Source of the DNA: Natrinema saccharevitans
Lineage (GTDB): Archaea > Halobacteriota > Halobacteria > Halobacteriales > Natrialbaceae
Length of the DNA: 64,000 nucleotides
Reading direction: 5' to 3'
NCBI RefSeq assembly: GCF_001953745.1
Contig: NZ_LWLN01000001.1
Location: 1,612,001 to 1,676,000, forward strand
Position 1 is the stretch's first letter. The number at the start of each line of letters is the position of its first letter. Below the pieces are notes generated by a model, which was given only the letters and a program-made list of their open reading frames with translations, had not been told where the DNA came from and did not search any database. Of the stretch, positions 1-13,424 are shown piece by piece. Made by a program: the position numbers and the translations under genes.

Positions 1-232
1 CGGTGACACGGTAGCTATCGACTCGACCGTCCCCGAAGCCGTCGACTCGATCGTTCCCGATCCGGAGACACGCTACCAGATCGAGCAGACGCCCGCGTTC
101 ATGGAACGCGACGACGGTGGTCGGACGACCAGCGCGTTCGTCTCCTACGCCTACAACCCGGACGGTGGCTCGCTCACATTCACTGACGTGGCGACGTACT
201 CAGTGGATGATCGGACCGTGGTGTTCACCTGA
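1..232 (+). CDS. cas5: Cas5 (type I-B), C-terminal end only
   Basis: This is the 3' end of a gene that begins before the window: about 76 codons are open from base 2 to a TGA at 230-232. Cas5 is the Cascade subunit that caps the crRNA 5' handle in the type I-B interference complex. The fragment has no diagnostic motif. The call rests on its position directly before cas3 in the usual order cas6-cas8-cas7-cas5-cas3-cas4-cas1-cas2, on the 1-nt stop/start overlap with cas3, and on a beta-rich ending (VATYSVDDRTVVFT) that suits a Cas5 C-terminus. Another Cascade subunit is possible but less likely. Confidence 0.7.
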   Translation, partial: GDTVAIDSTVPEAVDSIVPDPETRYQIEQTPAFMERDDGGRTTSAFVSYAYNPDGGSLTFTDVATYSVDDRTVVFT

Positions 233-2811
233 TGGTGGATACGCCGATTTCTCATCCCGCCGAGGACGGTGACGAGGCGACCTTGCTCCTCGATCACCTA
301 AACGAGGTGGCCGAGCGGGCCGAGTCCGTCGTCTCCACAGATGCAACGACGATCGGCGACGACCCGCTCACCGAGATGGTGGCCATAGTGGCACGATGTC
401 ACGACTTCGGGAAGGCGACGACGTGGTTCCAGGAGTACGTGGTTGATGAGCGAGACACCAGCAAGCGGACGAACCACTCCCTGTTCGGGGCCTATCTCGG
501 GTACTACGTCCTCGATCGGTTGGGCTACGACAGCGAGGACTGTCTCGCGGCCTTCGTCGCTCTCGCGAAACACCACGGTCGTCTCCCCGATACGGAGGAA
601 TACGTCGAAGGAGTTTCGCGCTTCGACAACAAGAGCGAGGCGAGCAACGAGCGCCAACGAGTCGTGATCGAACAGGTCGAGAATGTCAATGACCGTCGCC
701 GGACGTTCGCGCGATCGTTCGTCTCTGACGCTACCGACGGTAACGGGTCGTGGGAGGAGTTCGCCGAGAAGATCAACGATGCGGACGACTCCCTGTTCGA
801 TACCGTCTACGATCACGTCTCCATGTTCGGTTTCGGCAGCGACCGCTCGGCACCTTCCGACGAGTTCTACGAACTGCTCCTCCAGCTTTGGAGTGGGCTG
901 ATTCTCGCCGACAAAACGGTGGCTGCCGGTGTCGAGGACGGTGATCTCGACGCATCCGAGCCGGATACTCGTACGCTCTCGGAGTACATCGCCGACCTAG
1001 GAGGAGATACCGACGGAGACAGTCAGGAGGACGCTCTCGATACGCTCCGTGACGAGGCGAGAGACGACGTACTCGACGGTGTCGAGCAGTTCCGCGACTC
1101 GGATACGTCGATCGCAACGCTGACACTACCAACCGGGATGGGCAAGACGCTGACCGGTCTCAATGCTGCTCTCGCACTCCGAAACGAGAGTGAACGGGTC
1201 GTCTACGCATTGCCTTTTACCTCCGTCATCGATCAGGTCGCCGACGAACTCACGGACGTGTTCGATACCGACGCTCGAGACGACCTGTTGACGATCCACC
1301 ACCATCTGGCCGAGACGGTGACGAAACTCGGTGATCCAGATGACGATCCCGACGAGCATGCCCGACTCGCGGAGATGGTCGCCGAGAGCTGGCGCTCCGG
1401 GATGACGCTCACGACGTTCGTCCAACTCTTCGAGAGCCTCGTTGGCCCGAGTAACACCCAGTCGATGAAACTGCCGGCGCTGTACGATTCCGTGATCGTG
1501 CTGGACGAGCCCCAGGCATTGCCAATGGAGTGGTGGAAGCTCGTCCGCCGAATCACGACGATCCTCACAGAAGAGTACAACGCGACGATCATCGCTATGA
1601 CTGCGACCCAGCCGGCGACAAACGACGAGGATGCGGCGTCTCAAGCCCTGTTCGACGACGCGTTCGAACTGGTCAACGACGTGGATAGATACTTCGATCA
1701 CTTCGAACGAGTCGAGTACGACATTCATGATTCTGTACTCGCGTTCGACGACACTGACGCAACAGTAGACTACGAGACCGCTGGCCGGACGATCCTCAAC
1801 GAGACCGGCGAGACCGAGTCGGTACTCGCGATCTGTAACACCATCGACAGCGCCACCGAACTCACGGATTCGATCGAGGAACGCGAAGCGGTCGTCGACG
1901 TTGGTCGGTGTCTCGAGTTGGAACTCGACGATGACGGAGCTGACGTGGACGCTCTCGTCAAACGGGTCGAGGCGACGCTCGGTTCGAACGAACGAGCACT
2001 CGTCCACCTCTCAACTCGCCTTCGTCCGCGGGACCGGCTTGCGCTCATCGAAGCCACGAAGCAACTCACCGAGTACGACGTTCCGATCGTGGCGGTGTCG
2101 ACGCAGCTCATCGAGGCTGGGGTAGACATCAGCTTCGATCGAGTGTACCGCGACATCGCACCGATCGATAGCGCCGTTCAGGCGGCGGGTCGGTGTAACC
2201 GGTCGTTCGAGAGTGATCTCGGAGCGGTGACGCTCTGGTGGCTTGCTCCACCAGCGGGCACGACCAAGACCCCAGCACAGGCCGTCTACGACTCTGAGGG
2301 AGTGAGTACGATTTCACTGACTTCCAAAACACTCGACGCGATCGGTGCGAACGACGGAACCGTCGCCGAACGGACGATGACCCGCGAGGCCGTTCAGCAC
2401 TACTACGGTCTCGTCGCCGGTCGCAATCCGGGATCCCCACAGTACGTCGAGTGGGTCGATGAGGCGAAGGGAGCGAAGCTCGGCACACTCTCGCTGATCG
2501 GCCAACGAGAGAGCGTTGACGTGGTCGTCTGCCGAACGGACGCCGACCGTGATTTGGTCGATGCGATGGAATTGGCCGTGAGAGAATTCGACTACGACGC
2601 GTTCGACGACCGGCGCGACGAAGCCAAGGAGATCACTGTTTCGCTCCCGATCTACAGCCAAGACTCGACCGAGGCCGAGACAGCTCGACACCTTGAACCG
2701 CTCGGTGATACTGACCTCTGTGTACTCAGGCGGCCACAGGGGACCTCGTACTTCGACACAACGAAGGGGCTCGCTGTGGATGAGCCGAGCGTCGACGACC
2801 GGTTCCTATGA
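232..2811 (+). CDS. cas3: Cas3 HD nuclease-helicase, type I-B
   Basis: This 859-aa single-chain Cas3 is recruited by target-bound Cascade to nick, unwind and degrade invader DNA. The N-terminal HD nuclease shows RCHDFGK with H57-D58, then H82 and H114-H115 as likely further metal ligands. The SF2 helicase follows: Walker A TGMGKT near residues 301-306, a Walker B/DExx variant LDEPQ near 424-428, the S/TAT motif MTATQ near 456, and motif VI QAAGRCNR from about 650. HD and helicase in one protein is typical of I-B. The ATG at 232 overlaps the cas5 stop by 1 nt and the gene ends in an ATGA overlap with cas4, so translation is probably coupled. No damage is visible. Confidence 0.95.
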   Translation: MVDTPISHPAEDGDEATLLLDHLNEVAERAESVVSTDATTIGDDPLTEMVAIVARCHDFGKATTWFQEYVVDERDTSKRTNHSLFGAYLGYYVLDRLGYDSEDCLAAFVALAKHHGRLPDTEEYVEGVSRFDNKSEASNERQRVVIEQVENVNDRRRTFARSFVSDATDGNGSWEEFAEKINDADDSLFDTVYDHVSMFGFGSDRSAPSDEFYELLLQLWSGLILADKTVAAGVEDGDLDASEPDTRTLSEYIADLGGDTDGDSQEDALDTLRDEARDDVLDGVEQFRDSDTSIATLTLPTGMGKTLTGLNAALALRNESERVVYALPFTSVIDQVADELTDVFDTDARDDLLTIHHHLAETVTKLGDPDDDPDEHARLAEMVAESWRSGMTLTTFVQLFESLVGPSNTQSMKLPALYDSVIVLDEPQALPMEWWKLVRRITTILTEEYNATIIAMTATQPATNDEDAASQALFDDAFELVNDVDRYFDHFERVEYDIHDSVLAFDDTDATVDYETAGRTILNETGETESVLAICNTIDSATELTDSIEEREAVVDVGRCLELELDDDGADVDALVKRVEATLGSNERALVHLSTRLRPRDRLALIEATKQLTEYDVPIVAVSTQLIEAGVDISFDRVYRDIAPIDSAVQAAGRCNRSFESDLGAVTLWWLAPPAGTTKTPAQAVYDSEGVSTISLTSKTLDAIGANDGTVAERTMTREAVQHYYGLVAGRNPGSPQYVEWVDEAKGAKLGTLSLIGQRESVDVVVCRTDADRDLVDAMELAVREFDYDAFDDRRDEAKEITVSLPIYSQDSTEAETARHLEPLGDTDLCVLRRPQGTSYFDTTKGLAVDEPSVDDRFL

Positions 2812-3368
2812 CCGATTCATCGACTGACCCTGTCGACCGGTTTCTCGACGCTGCTAGAGACGAGACCGCCGAACTCCCCTTCCGGCTGACCGGCGTTATG
2901 TTCCAGTACTACGTCGTCTGTGAGCGAGAACTCTGGTTCCTCAGCCGTGACGTAGAGATCGATCGTGACACGCCATCAATCGTTCGCGGCAGCGACGTTG
3001 ACGACTCGGCTTACTCGGACAAGCGCCGAGACGTGCGTGTCGATGGGATCATCGCGATCGACGTACTGGACAGCGGCGAGATCCTGGAGGTCAAACCCTC
3101 GTCGTCGATGACCGAACCAGCGCGGCTGCAGTTGCTGTTCTACCTCTGGTATCTCGATCGGGTCACCGGCGTTGAGAAGACCGGTGTCCTGGCACATCCG
3201 ACAGAGAAACGACGCGAGACGATCGAACTGACCCCGGAAACCAGCGCCGAAGTCGAATCGGCTATCCGTGGGATCCGTGAGGTCGTCACCGCAGAATCGC
3301 CGCCACCGGCCGAGGGGAAGCCGGTCTGTGACTCGTGTGCCTATCACGACTTCTGCTGGAGTTGTTGA
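2808..3368 (+). CDS. cas4: Cas4 RecB-like Fe-S nuclease
   Basis: This 186-aa protein helps choose and trim PAM-containing prespacers for Cas1-Cas2. Visible features are C38 (YYVVCERE), a RecB nuclease core with D79 (RVDG) and ExK at E94/K96 (LEVKPSS), and a C-terminal cysteine cluster at C174, C177, C183 and C186. C38 with three of the C-terminal cysteines would hold the iron-sulfur cluster; there is one cysteine more than needed. The start is fixed by the ATGA overlap with cas3. Length and context fit type I-B Cas4, and it lies 2 nt before cas1. Confidence 0.94.
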   Translation: MTDSSTDPVDRFLDAARDETAELPFRLTGVMFQYYVVCERELWFLSRDVEIDRDTPSIVRGSDVDDSAYSDKRRDVRVDGIIAIDVLDSGEILEVKPSSSMTEPARLQLLFYLWYLDRVTGVEKTGVLAHPTEKRRETIELTPETSAEVESAIRGIREVVTAESPPPAEGKPVCDSCAYHDFCWSC

Positions 3369-4629: not shown

Positions 4630-4741
4630 CCGTCCCCGGTTGTTCCATCGACCCCGGGGGGTTCAGAGGTTATCGAGGGTCGACGGAAACGATGAAGTGT
4701 GAACGGCCAATAGAGCTGTTTACGTGGTCTAACTGGCCATG
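4630..4741 (+). promoter_or_regulatory. CRISPR leader
   Basis: About 112 bp separate the cas2 stop from the first repeat. By position this is the leader, which should hold the array promoter and the integration signal for new spacers. It has no open gene. TTTACG near 4720 is a weak TATA-like candidate. The leader is short and not strikingly AT-rich. Leader polarity (cas2 side = new end) agrees with the decayed repeats at the far end. Confidence 0.6.
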
Positions 4742-7715
4742 GTTTCAGAAGGACCCTTGTGGGGTCGAAGCACGACCTCCGCGGAGTCGTGCCGATCGGC
4801 GACGCGGTTTCAGAAGGACCCTTGTGGGGTCGAAGCCCAACTCTCGAGCGTGGTCCAATCCCACCGGAGATAGTTTCAGAAGGACCCTTGTGGGGTCGAA
4901 GCATGCAACCGGGTTCGGACGGGGTTATCAAAGGTATGTTTCAGAAGGACCCTTGTGGGGTCGAAGCGCCGTTCGTCCTGATCCGGTGGTAGCGTCCGCC
5001 TCGTTTCAGAAGGACCCTTGTGGGGTCGAAGCGCGTCATTATCCTCATCAACGCGGTCCCACAGACAGTTTCAGAAGGACCCTTGTGGGGTCGAAGCGCG
5101 GCTCGAGAGTACGACCCGTCGGCTCACCCGGGTTTCAGAAGGACCCTTGTGGGGTCGAAGCTCGAGGCCCCTGCCGTCCTTCGTGAACGCGTCCGCACCG
5201 GTTTCAGAAGGACCCTTGTGGGGTCGAAGCCCCGTCGACGCATGCTCCGCGGCTCCGCAGTGGCCCTGTTTCAGAAGGACCCTTGTGGGGTCGAAGCCGC
5301 ATCGGTCGAGACCGCGGCCTCGATCAGCGGCCCCGTTTCAGAAGGACCCTTGTGGGGTCGAAGCTAACTCTCTGTCGTGACCGATAAGTCCGAGTTGTTC
5401 GTTTCAGAAGGACCCTTGTGGGGTCGAAGCGGCCCGGTAGAGTCTCCCGAGGATGTTCCGGGCCTGTGTTTCAGAAGGACCCTTGTGGGGTCGAAGCTCC
5501 ACAAAGCGCTCACGCGCCCTCTCACGCAGGACGGGTTTCAGAAGGACCCTTGTGGGGTCGAAGCTATCTCCGGAGTCGATGCAAGCGAGGTCTCCGCAGA
5601 CGGTTTCAGAAGGACCCTTGTGGGGTCGAAGCGAATATGTCACCGTCTCGCCGTCGGGGCCGTCGATGTTTCAGAAGGACCCTTGTGGGGTCGAAGCTCG
5701 AGAAGGATTTTATCCCCGTTCGATGCCTCGTGTTTCAGAAGGACCCTTGTGGGGTCGAAGCGAGCGCGAGCGCCTCGAGGGCTGGGAGCGCCAGATCAGT
5801 TTCAGAAGGACCCTTGTGGGGTCGAAGCAACTATACAGCAAGCAACGATACCTATGCAAGTGGTTTCAGAAGGACCCTTGTGGGGTCGAAGCTGCCGCGT
5901 CGGGCAGGTCTATCGATTTCCCTGCTGTGGTTTCAGAAGGACCCTTGTGGGGTCGAAGCGTGCCGTTTCCATGTGTCCCCTCGATGTGAACGTTGTTTCA
6001 GAAGGACCCTTGTGGGGTCGAAGCCTCCACCTTGAGGAAGGAGAGAACCCGTCAAACCTGGTTTCAGAAGGACCCTTGTGGGGTCGAAGCGACTGATCGA
6101 ACGATCTCCACGAACGTTCACATCGAGTTTCAGAAGGACCCTTGTGGGGTCGAAGCGGGGAAGCACCAGCGAGATATCGAACTGCAAAGCCGTGTTTCAG
6201 AAGGACCCTTGTGGGGTCGAAGCTGTGGACAACTGATTATACACAGGTTCAGCGGGAGTTTCAGAAGGACCCTTGTGGGGTCGAAGCGTCGGTGAACGGG
6301 ACGTCGCCGTAGACGCCGCTGCCCCAGGTGTTTCAGAAGGACCCTTGTGGGGTCGAAGCGAGCGCTGCGCGATCACGTCATCGCTCAGCGGATGCTCGTT
6401 TCAGAAGGACCCTTGTGGGGTCGAAGCCAGGAGTGCGTGTTCGGCTTGAGCTTCGCGAACTCGTGTTTCAGAAGGACCCTTGTGGGGTCGAAGCCGGTAC
6501 TCGTGATCCGGGCAGGTGCACGTCTCGGCCGTTTCAGAAGGACCCTTGTGGGGTCGAAGCGCGAACTCGTACGTCGAGACGCTCGTCCCGTCGACGGGTT
6601 TCAGAAGGACCCTTGTGGGGTCGAAGCCTCGAAGGGCGGTTTGCCGTCCTCGGGTTGCGCGAGTTTCAGAAGGACCCTTGTGGGGTCGAAGCGACCGGCC
6701 GCTGCATGTTGGGGCCAGCGAGATCGAGTTTCAGAAGGACCCTTGTGGGGTCGAAGCTACGTGTCATACTCCGGGGAGCCAGAGTAAGACGGTTTCAGAA
6801 GGACCCTTGTGGGGTCGAAGCGATGGAGGTGGGGCCGGTGAGCCGTTCCGCACCAAGTTTCAGAAGGACCCTTGTGGGGTCGAAGCATGAACGCCGACGA
6901 CCGCGACCTCGAGGAGGCCAAGGTTTCAGAAGGACCCTTGTGGGGTCGAAGCGAGACCGTCGCGTCGAAACCGGTCACGATCGCTGAGTTTCAGAAGGAC
7001 CCTTGTGGGGTCGAAGCCCAGCGTCGTTTCCGACTCCCCCGACAGACAGTCCGGTTTCAGAAGGACCCTTGTGGGGTCGAAGCCGATCGGGCGGCATGAT
7101 GGTGGCGACGACGCCGACGAGTTTCAGAAGGACCCTTGTGGGGTCGAAGCGGGTCCCGTACCTCGATCTCGTCGATCTCGAGGGTGTTTCAGAAGGACCC
7201 TTGTGGGGTCGAAGCGTCGATAACGCTCTTACTCGGCGCGACGGCCAGCAAGTTTCAGAAGGACCCTTGTGGGGTCGAAGCCCGCCGTCGTCGTCGCCGG
7301 CGTCGCTCGACGAGTCGCGTTTCAGAAGGACCCTTGTGGGGTCGAAGCGCATACGCCATCGCCAGCGAGTAGCCCGTCGGATCGCGTTTCAGAAGGACCC
7401 TTGTGGGGTCGAAGCTACGGTATATAGAGGCTGTCTCTAAAAGTCGATAGCGTTTCAGAAGGACCCTTGTGGGGTCGAAGCAGGCATCGTCGCCACCTCG
7501 CTCGACAAGCAACAGCCCGTTTCAGAAGGACCCTTGTGGGGTCGAAGCCGGACGGCATCAAGGTCCTGTTTCGGGGTGACGCCGTTTCAGAAGGACCCTT
7601 GTGGGGTCGAAGCGTACTCGCGATCCGGGGCGACCGTGTCGTCCGTGAATGTTTCAGAAGGACCCTTGTGGGGTCGAAGCTTTTATCAGAAAGGTGGGGG
7701 TTGGTCAGCGGCAGC

Positions 7716-7847
7716 GTTTCAGAAGGACCCTTGTGGGGTCGAAGCGATGGTCGCCGGGTAGTCCATGTCAGCGGTCAGCTCGTTTCAGAAGGACCCTTGT
7801 GGGGTCGAAGCGATGGTCGCCGGGTAGTCCATGTCAGCGGTCAGCTC
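7716..7847 (+). repeat. Tandem duplication of one repeat-spacer unit
   Basis: Two consecutive 66-nt repeat-spacer units (7716-7781 and 7782-7847) carry the same spacer, starting GATGGTCGCCGGG and ending GGTCAGCTC. This is most simply explained by unequal recombination or replication slippage between repeats, not by independent acquisition. Confidence 0.9.
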
Positions 7848-8963
7848 GTTTCAGAAGGACCCTTGTGGGGTCGAAGCTATCGCTGTCCGTCGTACCCGTC
7901 GAAGCGGTCGACCAGTTTCAGAAGGACCCTTGTGGGGTCGAAGCCGTTTGAGGATCTACGCTGGGGTGGTTCGGAATGAGCGTTTCAGAAGGACCCTTGT
8001 GGGGTCGAAGCGGCCAGACGATGGTCATCGTCCTCGGTGCGCTCGGGGTTTCAGAAGGACCCTTGTGGGGTCGAAGCCTTGGTCAGACCACTCCACCGCT
8101 TTATCAGACCGGCGTTTCAGAAGGACCCTTGTGGGGTCGAAGCGGCGCGTCGGGCGTCATGTGGCTCCTGGCCACCGCGGTTTCAGAAGGACCCTTGTGG
8201 GGTCGAAGCGACGTTCTCCCCGTCTGTGCCGACTTCGTTAGCGACGTTTCAGAAGGACCCTTGTGGGGTCGAAGCGTATACGCGCCACGCGGCTTAGCAC
8301 CGTTGTACGTGTTTCAGAAGGACCCTTGTGGGGTCGAAGCACGTTGAGGACCTGGCCGACGGCGAACAGCGCGCCGAGTTTCAGAAGGACCCTTGTGGGG
8401 TCGAAGCTTCTACAAATCGTTTAACTTGAGTCCACAGTGTGTTGGTTTCAGAAGGACCCTTGTGGGGTCGAAGCGATCTCGACATCCAAGGCCTCGAGGC
8501 GCACCAGCGTTTCAGAAGGACCCTTGTGGGGTCGAAGCGACGACGATAAGCGCGGCGATGGGACAGTGACAGGTTTCAGAAGGACCCTTGTGGGGTCGAA
8601 GCCTGTCTGGTTGTACCGGCTGGACTCTGACGACACCGTTTCAGAAGGACCCTTGTGGGGTCGAAGCGCGGTATGCTCGCGACGCCTACCCGAGGTCGCG
8701 GGTGTTTCAGAAGGACCCTTGTGGGGTCGAAGCTCGACTTAGTCGCGAAGCCTCTGAGAATATATCTTGTTTCAGAAGGACCCTTGTGGGGTCGAAGCAA
8801 GATCCCCGAGGACAAGGTCATCAACCTCTACAGTTTCAGAAGGACCCTTGTGGGGTCGAAGCCGAGCGTGCACGTCTCGGCCCTCCGAGTCGGTGATGGT
8901 TTCAGAAGGACCCTTGTGGGGTCGAAGCGAGGTGTGCGAAATGACAGCGCGTAACGGGTCCGA

Positions 8964-9093
8964 GTTTCAGAAGGACCCTTGTGGGGTCGAAGCGGCTCAC
9001 GTCCTGGTGGTCCACGTCGAGGACACCGGTTTCAGAAGGACCCTTGTGGGGTCGAAGCGGCTCACGTCCTGGTGGTCCACGTCGAGGACACCG
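8964..9093 (+). repeat. Tandem duplication of one repeat-spacer unit
   Basis: Two consecutive 65-nt units (8964-9028 and 9029-9093) carry the same spacer, starting GGCTCACGTCCTGG and ending GAGGACACC before the next repeat. It is a second, independent example of a local unit duplication. Confidence 0.9.
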
Positions 9094-10149
9094 GTTTCAG
9101 AAGGACCCTTGTGGGGTCGAAGCTTCTCGCCGGTCTCCTCATCGACGTAGTTGTATGCGAGTTTCAGAAGGACCCTTGTGGGGTCGAAGCCCGATCACGT
9201 TCCACCAGCCACCGGGTGACCCATACGTTTCAGAAGGACCCTTGTGGGGTCGAAGCGCTGGTCGTCCTCCGCGTCGGCCAGCGTCTCGAGGTCTCGTTTC
9301 AGAAGGACCCTTGTGGGGTCGAAGCTATCCCCCAGTGCAACCGCTGAAAGAGTGGGCCGAGTTTCAGAAGGACCCTTGTGGGGTCGAAGCTCCACCGAGA
9401 CGGGTGTGACAACCCCTACGTGGGTTTCAGAAGGACCCTTGTGGGGTCGAAGCACAATTGAGAACTCAACCGATAGTATCGAAGTCAATGGTTTCAGAAG
9501 GACCCTTGTGGGGTCGAAGCACGAACTCGTCTCGACCATCGAGACAGAACTTGGTTTCAGAAGGACCCTTGTGGGGTCGAAGCTGTCCGGGGATGCAGAT
9601 CGCGTCGTCGTCGCCGTCGTTTCAGAAGGACCCTTGTGGGGTCGAAGCCGGTGTCGGAGTCGATGACTGCGACCCGGTCAGAATCGTTTCAGAAGGACCC
9701 TTGTGGGGTCGAAGCCTCTTTATCCAAGCCGAGAGTACACTTACTTCCACAGTTTCAGAAGGACCCTTGTGGGGTCGAAGCGACCGTGTGACGCTCGGTT
9801 AGCGATCCACCTGAGCAGTTTCAGAAGGACCCTTGTGGGGTCGAAGCCCGACGCTCTCCGCCGTCAGTGGCGATCTCCGGACTGTTTCAGAAGGACCCTT
9901 GTGGGGTCGAAGCTGTACTGAAACCCGCCGGTCCTAAATCTACCAATCTCGTTTCAGAAGGACCCTTGTGGGGTCGAAGCTCGACGAACAGCGAGTGGTA
10001 GGCCACCGAGCCGATGGTTTCAGAAGGACCCTTGTGGGGTCGAAGCGACGACGATCGTTCCGTCGGTGACAGCGCCCGGGTGGTTTCAGAAGGACCCTTG
10101 TGGGGTCGAAGCCGGCTCTTTGAGCCGTTTTCCGAGTGACGGGTCGCGC

Positions 10150-13025
10150 GTTTCAGAAGGACCCTTGTGGGGTCGAAGACCCGACGTATCGGATGGGGAA
10201 CGGCCGTCTGAGTGTGGTTTCAGAAGGACCCTTGTGGGGTCGAAGAATGTTTCAGCCGTGTCACATTGTGATATGGCTCTCCCGTTTCAGAAGGACCCTT
10301 GTGGGGTCGAAGAGTGGACGCCGTGTTTGACCATCCGCCGGTAGACAGCAGTTTCAGAAGGACCCTTGTGGGGTCGAAGATCTGGGAAGTCCGCTCAGTA
10401 GACTCAGGGGCTGAACGGTTTCAGAAGGACCCTTGTGGGGTCGAAGACCGCGCGGGCGCCTCGCGCTCGAGACTGCGGTTCAGTTTCAGAAGGACCCTTG
10501 TGGGGTCGAAGAGCTATCTTGGTCGGCACGATCCGAACCCAAATGGACCGGTTTCAGAAGGACCCTTGTGGGGTCGAAGACCGTGAGAAAATCCACTGGT
10601 TAACGGGTGAGATTGGTTTCAGAAGGACCCTTGTGGGGTCGAAGACGCAACTCGAGACCGGCGTGGTAGCACGTCGGCATCGTTTCAGAAGGACCCTTGT
10701 GGGGTCGAAGATTGCCACGCCATTACGACGGTCGTTTCAATCCGTTGTTTCAGAAGGACCCTTGTGGGGTCGAAGAACGGACTGGAAGGGGTTGGATGAA
10801 CGGGCAAAGGAAAGTTTCAGAAGGACCCTTGTGGGGTCGAAGAAAGCAACTCAGTGCGCTCGAGGGCGCGTTTGGGATAGGTTTCAGAAGGACCCTTGTG
10901 GGGTCGAAGAAGCACCAATGCACGGCGTGCGGGAAGGAAATCAGCAAGTTTCAGAAGGACCCTTGTGGGGTCGAAGATACACGGGCGTTGAATTGGTCTG
11001 TCGGAGTGGGTTGTGTTTCAGAAGGACCCTTGTGGGGTCGAAGACGATCACCCGCAGGGATCCATCCTCGCTCAGGAGACCGTTTCAGAAGGACCCTTGT
11101 GGGGTCGAAGAACGAAGGAACTCCAGGAGATGCTGTCTACGAAGGAAGTTTCAGAAGGACCCTTGTGGGGTCGAAGAGCGATCGCGACGAGGCTCGCGAG
11201 GTCGCGGGACACGTTTCAGAAGGACCCTTGTGGGGTCGAAGATGCGAGTGAGTGGCTCGTCGTCGAGGACCTGTCGGGGTTTCAGAAGGACCCTTGTGGG
11301 GTCGAAGAGATCGATCAGTATCGCCCGTCTCGGTATCGCTCATGGTTTCAGAAGGACCCTTGTGGGGTCGAAGAGAAGCGCCAAACGGCGGCGTCTGGAA
11401 AGCCCGCCGCGTTTCAGAAGGACCCTTGTGGGGTCGAAGATACACGAGCGTTGGGCGCTACCAGAGCGTCGTCCTCCGTTTCAGAAGGACCCTTGTGGGG
11501 TCGAAGAGACTCGTCGATCGTCGTCACCGACTCCTGTGCGAGTTTCAGAAGGACCCTTGTGGGGTCGAAGAGTCCGAATCACTTTGGCACATCGTAGCGA
11601 AGACTGGTTTCAGAAGGACCCTTGTGGGGTCGAAGATACTGCTCGCAGTAGCTGTGTTACTGTTCGCGTGGATGTTTCAGAAGGACCCTTGTGGGGTCGA
11701 AGACTCAAATTCCTCCGGGTCAACCCCACCGTTCAGAAGGTTTCAGAAGGACCCTTGTGGGGTCGAAGACCGGTTCGACGGCGACGAGTACCCGGGGTTG
11801 AAGGAGAGTTTCAGAAGGACCCTTGTGGGGTCGAAGAGAAGCCGACGAGCCCCAGTCGCTGACCTACGACGTGTTTCAGAAGGACCCTTGTGGGGTCGAA
11901 GACTCCCGTTGAGAGTACGGACGGCACGGACCCGGTGGTTTCAGAAGGACCCTTGTGGGGTCGAAGAGTCGAGCGGACCGGCGTTGACACGGACGGTTTC
12001 AACGGTTCCAGAAGGACCCTTGTGGGGTCGAAGACGCTATGTCCATCGTGTCATGGACAGGTCCATACGGGGTTTCAGAAGGACCCTTGTGGGGTCGAAG
12101 ACCCTCTCATCCAGCGGCGGATGGTATGACGATGAACCGTTTCAGAAGGACCCTTGTGGGGTCGAAGACCCTCTCATCCAGCGGCGGATGGTATGACGAT
12201 GAACCGTTTCAGAAGGACCCTTGTGGGGTCGAAGAGAGGTGTCTATCTAATTACCCGGCCACTTATATTCGTTTCAGAAGGACCCTTGTGGGGTCGAAGA
12301 ATGCAGCCGGACACGATCGCCGTCGTATTCCTCAGGTTTCAGAAGGACCCTTGTGGGGTCGAAGAGCTTCCCCGTGCGCGACGGGAAAGTACATCGTCGC
12401 TGTTTCAGAAGGACCCTTGTGGGGTCGAAGAACGGTTTGCTGTGGTTGACCAGCATTCATATCCGTCGTTTCAGAAGGACCCTTGTGGGGTCGAAGACAG
12501 ACACCCCAGCCCGAACATCTGGTCCCGGACTCGAGTTTCAGAAGGACCCTTGTGGGGTCGAAGAGGGACTTGCTCGAGGATATTGACGCGACAAGTTCGA
12601 GTTTCAGAAGGACCCTTGTGGGGTCGAAGACGAGATCAACCTCGAGGTTGGGCGGATCGGTGATTGTTTCAGAAGGACCCTTGTGGGGTCGAAAACCGAC
12701 CGAGCCCGAGGTCAACGTCGCCGTCGATCTCGGTTTCAGAAGGACCCTTGTGGGGTCGAAGAGGGCCCTCGGTGTCGATCTCGATCTCGATGCCGCGTTT
12801 CAGAAGGACCCTTGTGGGGTCGAAGAGCTGTCAGCGATGATTTGCCGACGCCGCCCGCTTCGTTTCAGAAGGACCCTTGTGGGGTCGAAGATGGTACTGC
12901 GTGTCGACCGTACTCTCGCCCTTGTCGAGTTTCAGAAGGACCCTTGTGGGGTCGAAGACGTAACTGCCTCTTCAACGGTGAGTGGGTCGTCGTTCGTTTC
13001 AGAAGGACCCTTGTGGGGTCGAAGA
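10150..13025 (+). repeat. Block of 44 CRISPR repeats ending in A
   Basis: From the repeat starting at 10150 to the one ending at 13025, every repeat ends ...GTCGAAGA rather than ...GTCGAAGC. The block is uninterrupted; the repeat at 12666 ends GAAAA. The next older repeat (13065-13094) ends in G, and the three older ones end in C. Because each new repeat is copied from the leader-proximal one, a contiguous block implies inherited changes of the template repeat rather than random mutation. Confidence 0.9.
12072..12205 (+). repeat. Tandem duplication of one repeat-spacer unit
   Basis: Two consecutive 67-nt units (12072-12138 and 12139-12205) carry the same spacer, starting CCCTCTCATCCAG and ending CGATGAACC. 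This is the third duplicated unit, and it lies within the A-ending repeat block. Confidence 0.9.
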
Positions 13026-13329
13026 TTCGAGACGGTGTAGTACCGTTCCTCCGTTTCGGTGAGTGTTTCAGAAGGACCCTTGTGGGGTCGAAGGCGTCGC
13101 GGGTCGGCTGATTCGTGGTGGCGCAGTTCATGTTTCAGAAGGACCCTTGTGGGGTCGAAGCGGGCACTGAGCCCGATCAGGATCAGGAGGACGCCGGTTT
13201 CAGAAGGACCCTTGTGGGGTCGAAGCCTGCGTTTGGAGTGTTGCGACTAACTCCGGTTGCTTGTGTTTCAGAAGGACCCTTGTGGGGTCGAAGCCGCGAT
13301 CACGTCGTGAAGTTGGCCCACCGGCATCC

Positions 13330-13424
13330 GTTATAGACGGACCTTGTGGGGTTGAAGTTTCCACTTGAACAGTTCGGAATTCGTCTCGGTAAACAGTTAC
13401 AGACGGACCCTTGTGGGTCGAAGC
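13330..13424 (+). repeat. Two degenerate distal CRISPR repeats
   Basis: The last two repeats are decayed: 13330-13357 (GTTATAGACGGACC..., one base deleted, GTTGAAG ending) and 13396-13424 (GTTACAGACGGACCC..., one G missing, GTCGAAGC ending). Both read AGACGGACC where all intact copies read AGAAGGACC. They mark the old end of the array. Confidence 0.85.

What the first reader, a model, noticed from the sequence alone, without database searches (positions are those of the whole stretch)
10150..13094. Contiguous block of CRISPR repeats with a different last base
Repeats 83-126 (starts 10150-12996) all end in A, the older repeat at 13065 ends in G, the three oldest intact ones end in C, and the 82 newest end in C. 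A spacer-derived last base would give a mixture, not blocks. Known biology: each new repeat is copied from the leader-proximal one, so the block should record two or three sequential changes of the template (C to G to A, then back to C) or a fusion of two arrays. The last base lies in the 8-nt crRNA handle, so the change could affect handle recognition and self/non-self discrimination. One array that preserves such states in order is unusual.
Basis: partly seen in the sequence, partly recalled or inferred. Interest (0 to 1): 0.75.

Follow-up and report, generated by a model that had tools for sequence, protein, structure and literature searches.

The report
CRISPR array recording repeat-template changes
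A 130-repeat CRISPR memory bank in a salt-loving archaeon carries a block of 44 repeats ending in A between blocks ending in C, because each new repeat is copied from its predecessor and inherits its errors; this is known CRISPR behaviour, though such errors pile up at the repeat's last base more than chance predicts.

Summary
Of 130 intact repeats, #1-82 end in C, #83-126 in A, #127 in G and #128-130 in C. Chance cannot give this (p below 1e-29). The array is the only one in the genome. It lies behind a complete type I-B operon.

The main alternative, a PAM/spacer-derived last base as in E. coli, was tested and fails. Protospacers of A-block spacers 85, 101, 118 and 123 carry C, not A, at -1 (TTC in three). 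C-block spacer 9 has a perfect protospacer with G at -1. The last base is therefore copied from the leader-proximal repeat, and the blocks record successive template states.

It is not unique. In 83 haloarchaeal I-B arrays, 8 have last-base blocks (e.g. A5-G4-T4-C4, T118-C20). The last base takes 9 of 14 block changes (p about 1e-10). Stretches of repeat variants explained by copying were reported in 2010 (PMC2886076). In Haloferax, crRNA with A at -1 works and G does not (PMC4326828).

What makes the last base labile, and how A returned to C, remains open. Array fusion is disfavoured, not excluded.

The parts
232..2811 (+). cas3 (HD + helicase)
   Evidence: NCBIfam cas3_core and cas3_HD
2808..3368 (+). 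cas4
   Evidence: NCBIfam TIGR00372
3335..4363 (+). cas1, type I-B
   Evidence: NCBIfam TIGR03641 cas1_HMARI, 423 bits
4369..4629 (+). cas2
   Evidence: NCBIfam TIGR01573
4630..4741 (+). leader, between cas2 and the first repeat
   Evidence: sequence; no copy inside the array
4742..10149 (+). C block: repeats 1-82 (newest) ending in C, with their spacers
10150..13064 (+). A block: repeats 83-126 ending in A, with their spacers
   Evidence: protospacers of spacers 85, 101, 118, 123 have C at -1
13065..13131 (+). repeat 127 ending in G, with spacer 127
13132..13329 (+). repeats 128-130 (oldest intact) ending in C, with spacers
13330..13424 (+). two degenerate distal repeats (13330-13358 and 13396-13424); both carry C at position 9 (GACGG), as in relatives, where the 130 intact repeats carry A (GAAGG)
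   Evidence: sequence

Best explanation
This is a type I-B haloarchaeal CRISPR array in which the whole 30-nt repeat, last base included, is copied from the leader-proximal repeat each time a spacer is inserted. A change at the last base of that repeat is then inherited by all later repeats until the next change, giving blocks. Read from oldest to newest, the template went C, G (one acquisition), A (44 acquisitions), C (82 acquisitions). Shown here: the block order, and the independence of the last base from the protospacer base in both the A and C blocks. Inferred: that each switch was a substitution (or, for the return to C, possibly gene conversion) in the first repeat. Also inferred: that A persisted because an A at crRNA position -1 is tolerated by the effector.
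For: Exact blocks. A-block protospacers have C at -1: spacer 85 TTC in two genomes (a third, G020, has TTT), 101 TTC in a genome and in virus HJTV-4, 123 TTC in four genomes (GAC in a fifth), 118 GTC. C-block spacer 9 has a 100% match with G at -1, and 58 and 80 have T, yet their repeats end in C. In the survey the last base is constant through most arrays and changes in blocks in 8 of 83. L143 #13, the first T-ended repeat after C, has a protospacer with TTC in normal register, so its T is not spacer-derived. Complete cas6-cas8b-cas7-cas5-cas3-cas4-cas1-cas2 set and a single array. Literature: polarised duplication, and stretches of repeat variants explained by copying (PMC2886076).
Against: Good protospacers were found for only four A-block spacers, with 2-3 mismatches. 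Three changes at the same base, one of them an exact return to C, is more than uniform point mutation would give. No protospacer was found for the switch-point spacers 126 and 127, so the cause of those switches is untested.
Confidence: 0.88

Rival explanations
1. The last base comes from the PAM end of each incoming spacer, as in E. coli type I-E, and the blocks reflect a past change of PAM choice.
For: The dominant last base C equals the last base of the TTC PAM; in E. coli the last repeat base is PAM-derived (PMC10011333).
Against: A-block protospacers have C, not A, at -1; C-block spacers 9, 58 and 80 have G or T at -1 but C-ended repeats.
Confidence: 0.02
2. The A block (with or without the G repeat) came in by recombination with another array of the same repeat type.
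For: It explains C-A-C without a return mutation; recombination between repeats leaves no scar. Three adjacent duplicated spacers (46/47, 65/66, 112/113) suggest that units do recombine or slip. L107 shows a similar there-and-back block at position 9.
Against: All 130 repeats share one 29-nt core (two single variants) found in no other of 391 class genomes; only one array in the genome; no leader remnant inside; spacer length and GC do not differ significantly between blocks (p = 0.12 and 0.07); no shared spacers seen in arrays of the genus.
Confidence: 0.1
3. The copied base is switched by occasional one-base-early integration: the duplicated repeat is cut one base short, the prespacer supplies its last base, and that base is then copied. 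Copying is the same as in the best explanation; only the cause of each switch differs.
For: The last base takes 9 of 14 block changes in 83 arrays, more than uniform or tolerance-weighted expectation (p = 9e-11 and 3e-8). Block-to-singleton ratio is higher there (9:7 against 5:34, p = 0.002). Switch-point spacers have odd lengths in 3 of about 20 cases, p = 0.01 post hoc; spacer 126, at the G-to-A switch, is 39 nt and begins with TTC.
Against: The one switch-point protospacer found (L143 #13) has TTC in normal register and does not supply the new T. An excess of C-to-T changes looks like ordinary mutation. Selection on the other positions for integration could also produce the hotspot.
Confidence: 0.25

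Closest known systems
Stretches of conserved repeat variants in Escherichia/Salmonella CRISPR arrays (Touchon and Rocha 2010, PMC2886076)
   Same: Contiguous variant repeats taken as evidence that a new repeat is a duplicate of the adjacent one.
   Different: Enterobacterial systems there; here type I-B, the change is at the junction base, and copying is separated from PAM derivation by protospacers.
Haloarcula hispanica type I-B adaptation (PMC3936756)
   Same: TTC PAM (91 of 97 new spacers there) and leader-end acquisition.
   Different: The passages read there report no change of the last repeat base.
E. coli type I-E repeat end (Goren et al. 2012, cited in PMC10011333)
   Same: A special status of the last repeat base at the repeat-spacer junction.
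   Different: In E. coli that base comes from the PAM; here it is independent of the protospacer.
Haloferax volcanii crRNA handle variants (PMC4326828)
   Same: The base at issue is -1 of the 8-nt handle; C, U and A at -1 are active.
   Different: Laboratory variants there, natural blocks here. G at -1 was inactive there; here G lasts one repeat, but in relatives G runs reach 37 (L106) and all 27 repeats (L109).

Membership tests
Type I-B CRISPR-Cas | cas8b (Csh1), cas7 (Csh2), cas5h, cas6, cas3 | tested here: met
   NCBIfam matches above cut-off
Type I-B CRISPR-Cas | cas1 of HMARI type with cas2 and cas4 next to a leader and array | tested here: met
Haloarchaeal I-B array | 30-nt repeat GTTTCAG...GAAGN with 33-39 nt spacers | tested here: met
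   one spacer of 42 nt; survey
Haloarchaeal I-B array | TTC PAM | tested here: met
   spacers 28, 34, 57, 63, 79, 85, 101, 123; a few sites with other motifs
E. coli-like PAM-derived last repeat base | last repeat base equals protospacer -1 base | tested here: not met
   both blocks
Copied repeat variants (polarised duplication) | variant shared by a contiguous run and independent of the spacer | tested here: met
Fused or recombined array | second leader, differing core, or the block present separately elsewhere | tested here: not met
   conspecific strains not available, so not excluded

The most novel reading that the evidence does not exclude
The repeat-spacer junction of haloarchaeal I-B arrays is a real hotspot: Cas1-Cas2 sometimes duplicates 29 instead of 30 bases, lets the prespacer donate the last base, and then fixes it by copying, so arrays carry a record of integration errors.
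Probability: 0.25. Interest if true: 0.5.

Novelty: new member of a known kind. Interest (0 to 1): 0.3.

Why it matters
It shows from natural sequences that in type I-B the whole 30-nt repeat is copied, unlike in E. coli type I-E. The block boundaries give ordered marks along the spacer record that could be used to detect recombination between arrays. If the junction hotspot is real, it gives a natural count of integration errors.

Tried and rejected
PAM-derived last base: rejected by protospacers. Differences in spacer length or GC between blocks as a sign of fusion: not significant. Leader remnant inside the array: none, best 20 of 40 matching bases. Protospacers of the switch-point spacers 126 and 127 and of the switch-point spacers of relatives: no match in phages; only partial matches in plasmids of unrelated bacteria; none in viral contigs; in class and family genomes only partial or chance matches except L143 #13. 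A scan of genome contigs for an 18-mer of spacer 126 gave three matches in unrelated bacteria, not pursued. Viral-contig scans for spacers 85 and 123 gave nothing. Single odd repeats in L105, L159 and L172 sit at partly duplicated or N-containing repeats and were not counted as blocks.

Full report
Check. A mechanical scan of the window finds 130 intact repeats in one array from 4742 to 13294, all with the 29-nt core GTTTCAGAAGGACCCTTGTGGGGTCGAAG, two of them with a single change (#111, #121). The last base runs C82, A44, G1, C3 from the leader side. With these counts four or fewer runs has a probability below 1e-29.

Context. Upstream lie cas6, cas8b, cas7, cas5 (locus L242, just before the window), then cas3, cas4, cas1 and cas2, a short leader (4630-4741) and the array. 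This is a complete type I-B system. The repeat pattern occurs nowhere else in the genome. The exact core was found in no other of 391 genomes of the class.

Is the last base copied or spacer-derived? In E. coli type I-E the last repeat base is the PAM's G (PMC10011333). Here the usual last base C equals the end of the TTC PAM known from Haloarcula hispanica (PMC3936756), so the same could hold. I collected protospacers from relatives and viruses and read the flanks. A-block spacers: 85 (two mismatches, TTC in two genomes; TTT in a third, with four), 101 (two mismatches, TTC in a genome and in virus HJTV-4), 123 (three to five mismatches, TTC in four genomes, GAC in a fifth) and 118 (three mismatches, GTC). 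None has A at -1. C-block spacers 28, 34, 57, 63 and 79 have TTC, but spacer 9 matches its own genome perfectly with ATG upstream, and 58 and 80 match with TTT. The repeat base is therefore independent of the protospacer in both blocks; it is copied with the repeat.

How common is it? I fetched the neighbourhood of type I-B cas1 genes across the order, and arrays of the genus, and tabulated the arrays. In 83 arrays with about 4,080 repeats the last base is mostly C (72 arrays), T in 7, G in 3, A in 1. Eight arrays, the window included, have last-base blocks under a strict criterion (runs of at least three, the three distal repeats dropped). Full columns include L106 G37 C23, L108 G5 A1 G3 C14 A1, L110 T7 A3 T1 C2, L126 A4 C20, L143 A5 G4 T4 C4, L149 C53 T6 C1 and L184 T118 C20. 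Elsewhere in the repeat only positions 9 and 17 showed blocks: L107 and L186 at position 9, L171 at 9 and 17. The last base takes 9 of 14 block changes: p = 9e-11 for uniform positions, 3e-8 when positions are weighted by their variability between arrays, and 3e-7 by the same weighting with one window change removed. Blocks relative to unpropagated singletons are also enriched there (9:7 against 5:34, p = 0.002).

Why the last base? Three causes are open. (1) Tolerance: in Haloferax a crRNA with U or A at -1 works, one with G does not (PMC4326828). This fits A persisting for 44 acquisitions and G for one here, but relatives hold long G blocks. (2) A junction error in which integration one base early lets the prespacer supply the base. 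Odd spacer lengths at switch points (3 of about 20 against 2.3%, p = 0.01, post hoc) hint at it; spacer 126, at the G-to-A switch, is 39 nt and begins with TTC. The only switch-point protospacer found, L143 #13, has TTC in normal register and does not supply the T. (3) Ordinary mutation, with other positions held by the integrase and Cas6. I cannot decide between them.

The return from A to C. It may be a back mutation, gene conversion from an old C-ended repeat (haloarchaea are polyploid, from general knowledge), or recombination with another array. The shared unique core, the single array and the lack of a leader remnant speak against a foreign array, but a sister strain's array would look the same. 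L107 shows a comparable there-and-back block at position 9 (C34 T31 C4), so the pattern is not confined to the last base. The two degenerate distal repeats of the window carry C at position 9, as relatives do, while the 130 intact repeats carry A; this looks like an older template change.

Prior knowledge. Touchon and Rocha (PMC2886076) already read stretches of repeat variants as evidence for duplication of the adjacent repeat. The finding is a clear type I-B example of a known kind, with a last-base hotspot that I did not find described in the papers searched; the library lacks most subscription papers, so this is no proof of novelty.

Limits. Four A-block spacers carry the test; the survey is one genome per species; conspecific strains were not available; the organism's name is not given. 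The survey counts depend on the run-length criterion.

Noticed in passing
window 5162-5200 (spacer 7) and 5298-5334 (spacer 9): Both match the organism's own chromosome at 100%: spacer 7 a gene for a DAO-family FAD oxidoreductase (PAM position ACC), spacer 9 a gene with a volactin domain (ATG). Neither site has TTC, which may explain tolerance.
   Followed up: partly
window 7746-7847, 8994-9093, 12102-12205: Three adjacent pairs of identical spacers (46/47, 65/66, 112/113), probably unit duplications.
   Followed up: no
window 13330-13424: Two degenerate distal repeats with C at position 9, as in relatives, unlike the 130 intact repeats.
   Followed up: partly
L107 (genome G021), array 5763-10284: Repeat position 9 runs C34 T31 C4, an internal there-and-back block.
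   Followed up: partly
L105, L159, L172: Single repeats with partial duplication, some with an N, followed by 49-60 nt 'spacers' that contain repeat pieces; possibly assembly artefacts.
   Followed up: no
L133, after repeat 75: About 400 bp interrupt the array, and the part beyond has G-ended repeats.
   Followed up: no
window 9914-9950 (spacer 79) and 11375-11410 (spacer 101): Spacers matching haloviruses HJIV1 and HJTV-4 of Natrinema/Haloterrigena hosts with TTC upstream.
   Followed up: yes
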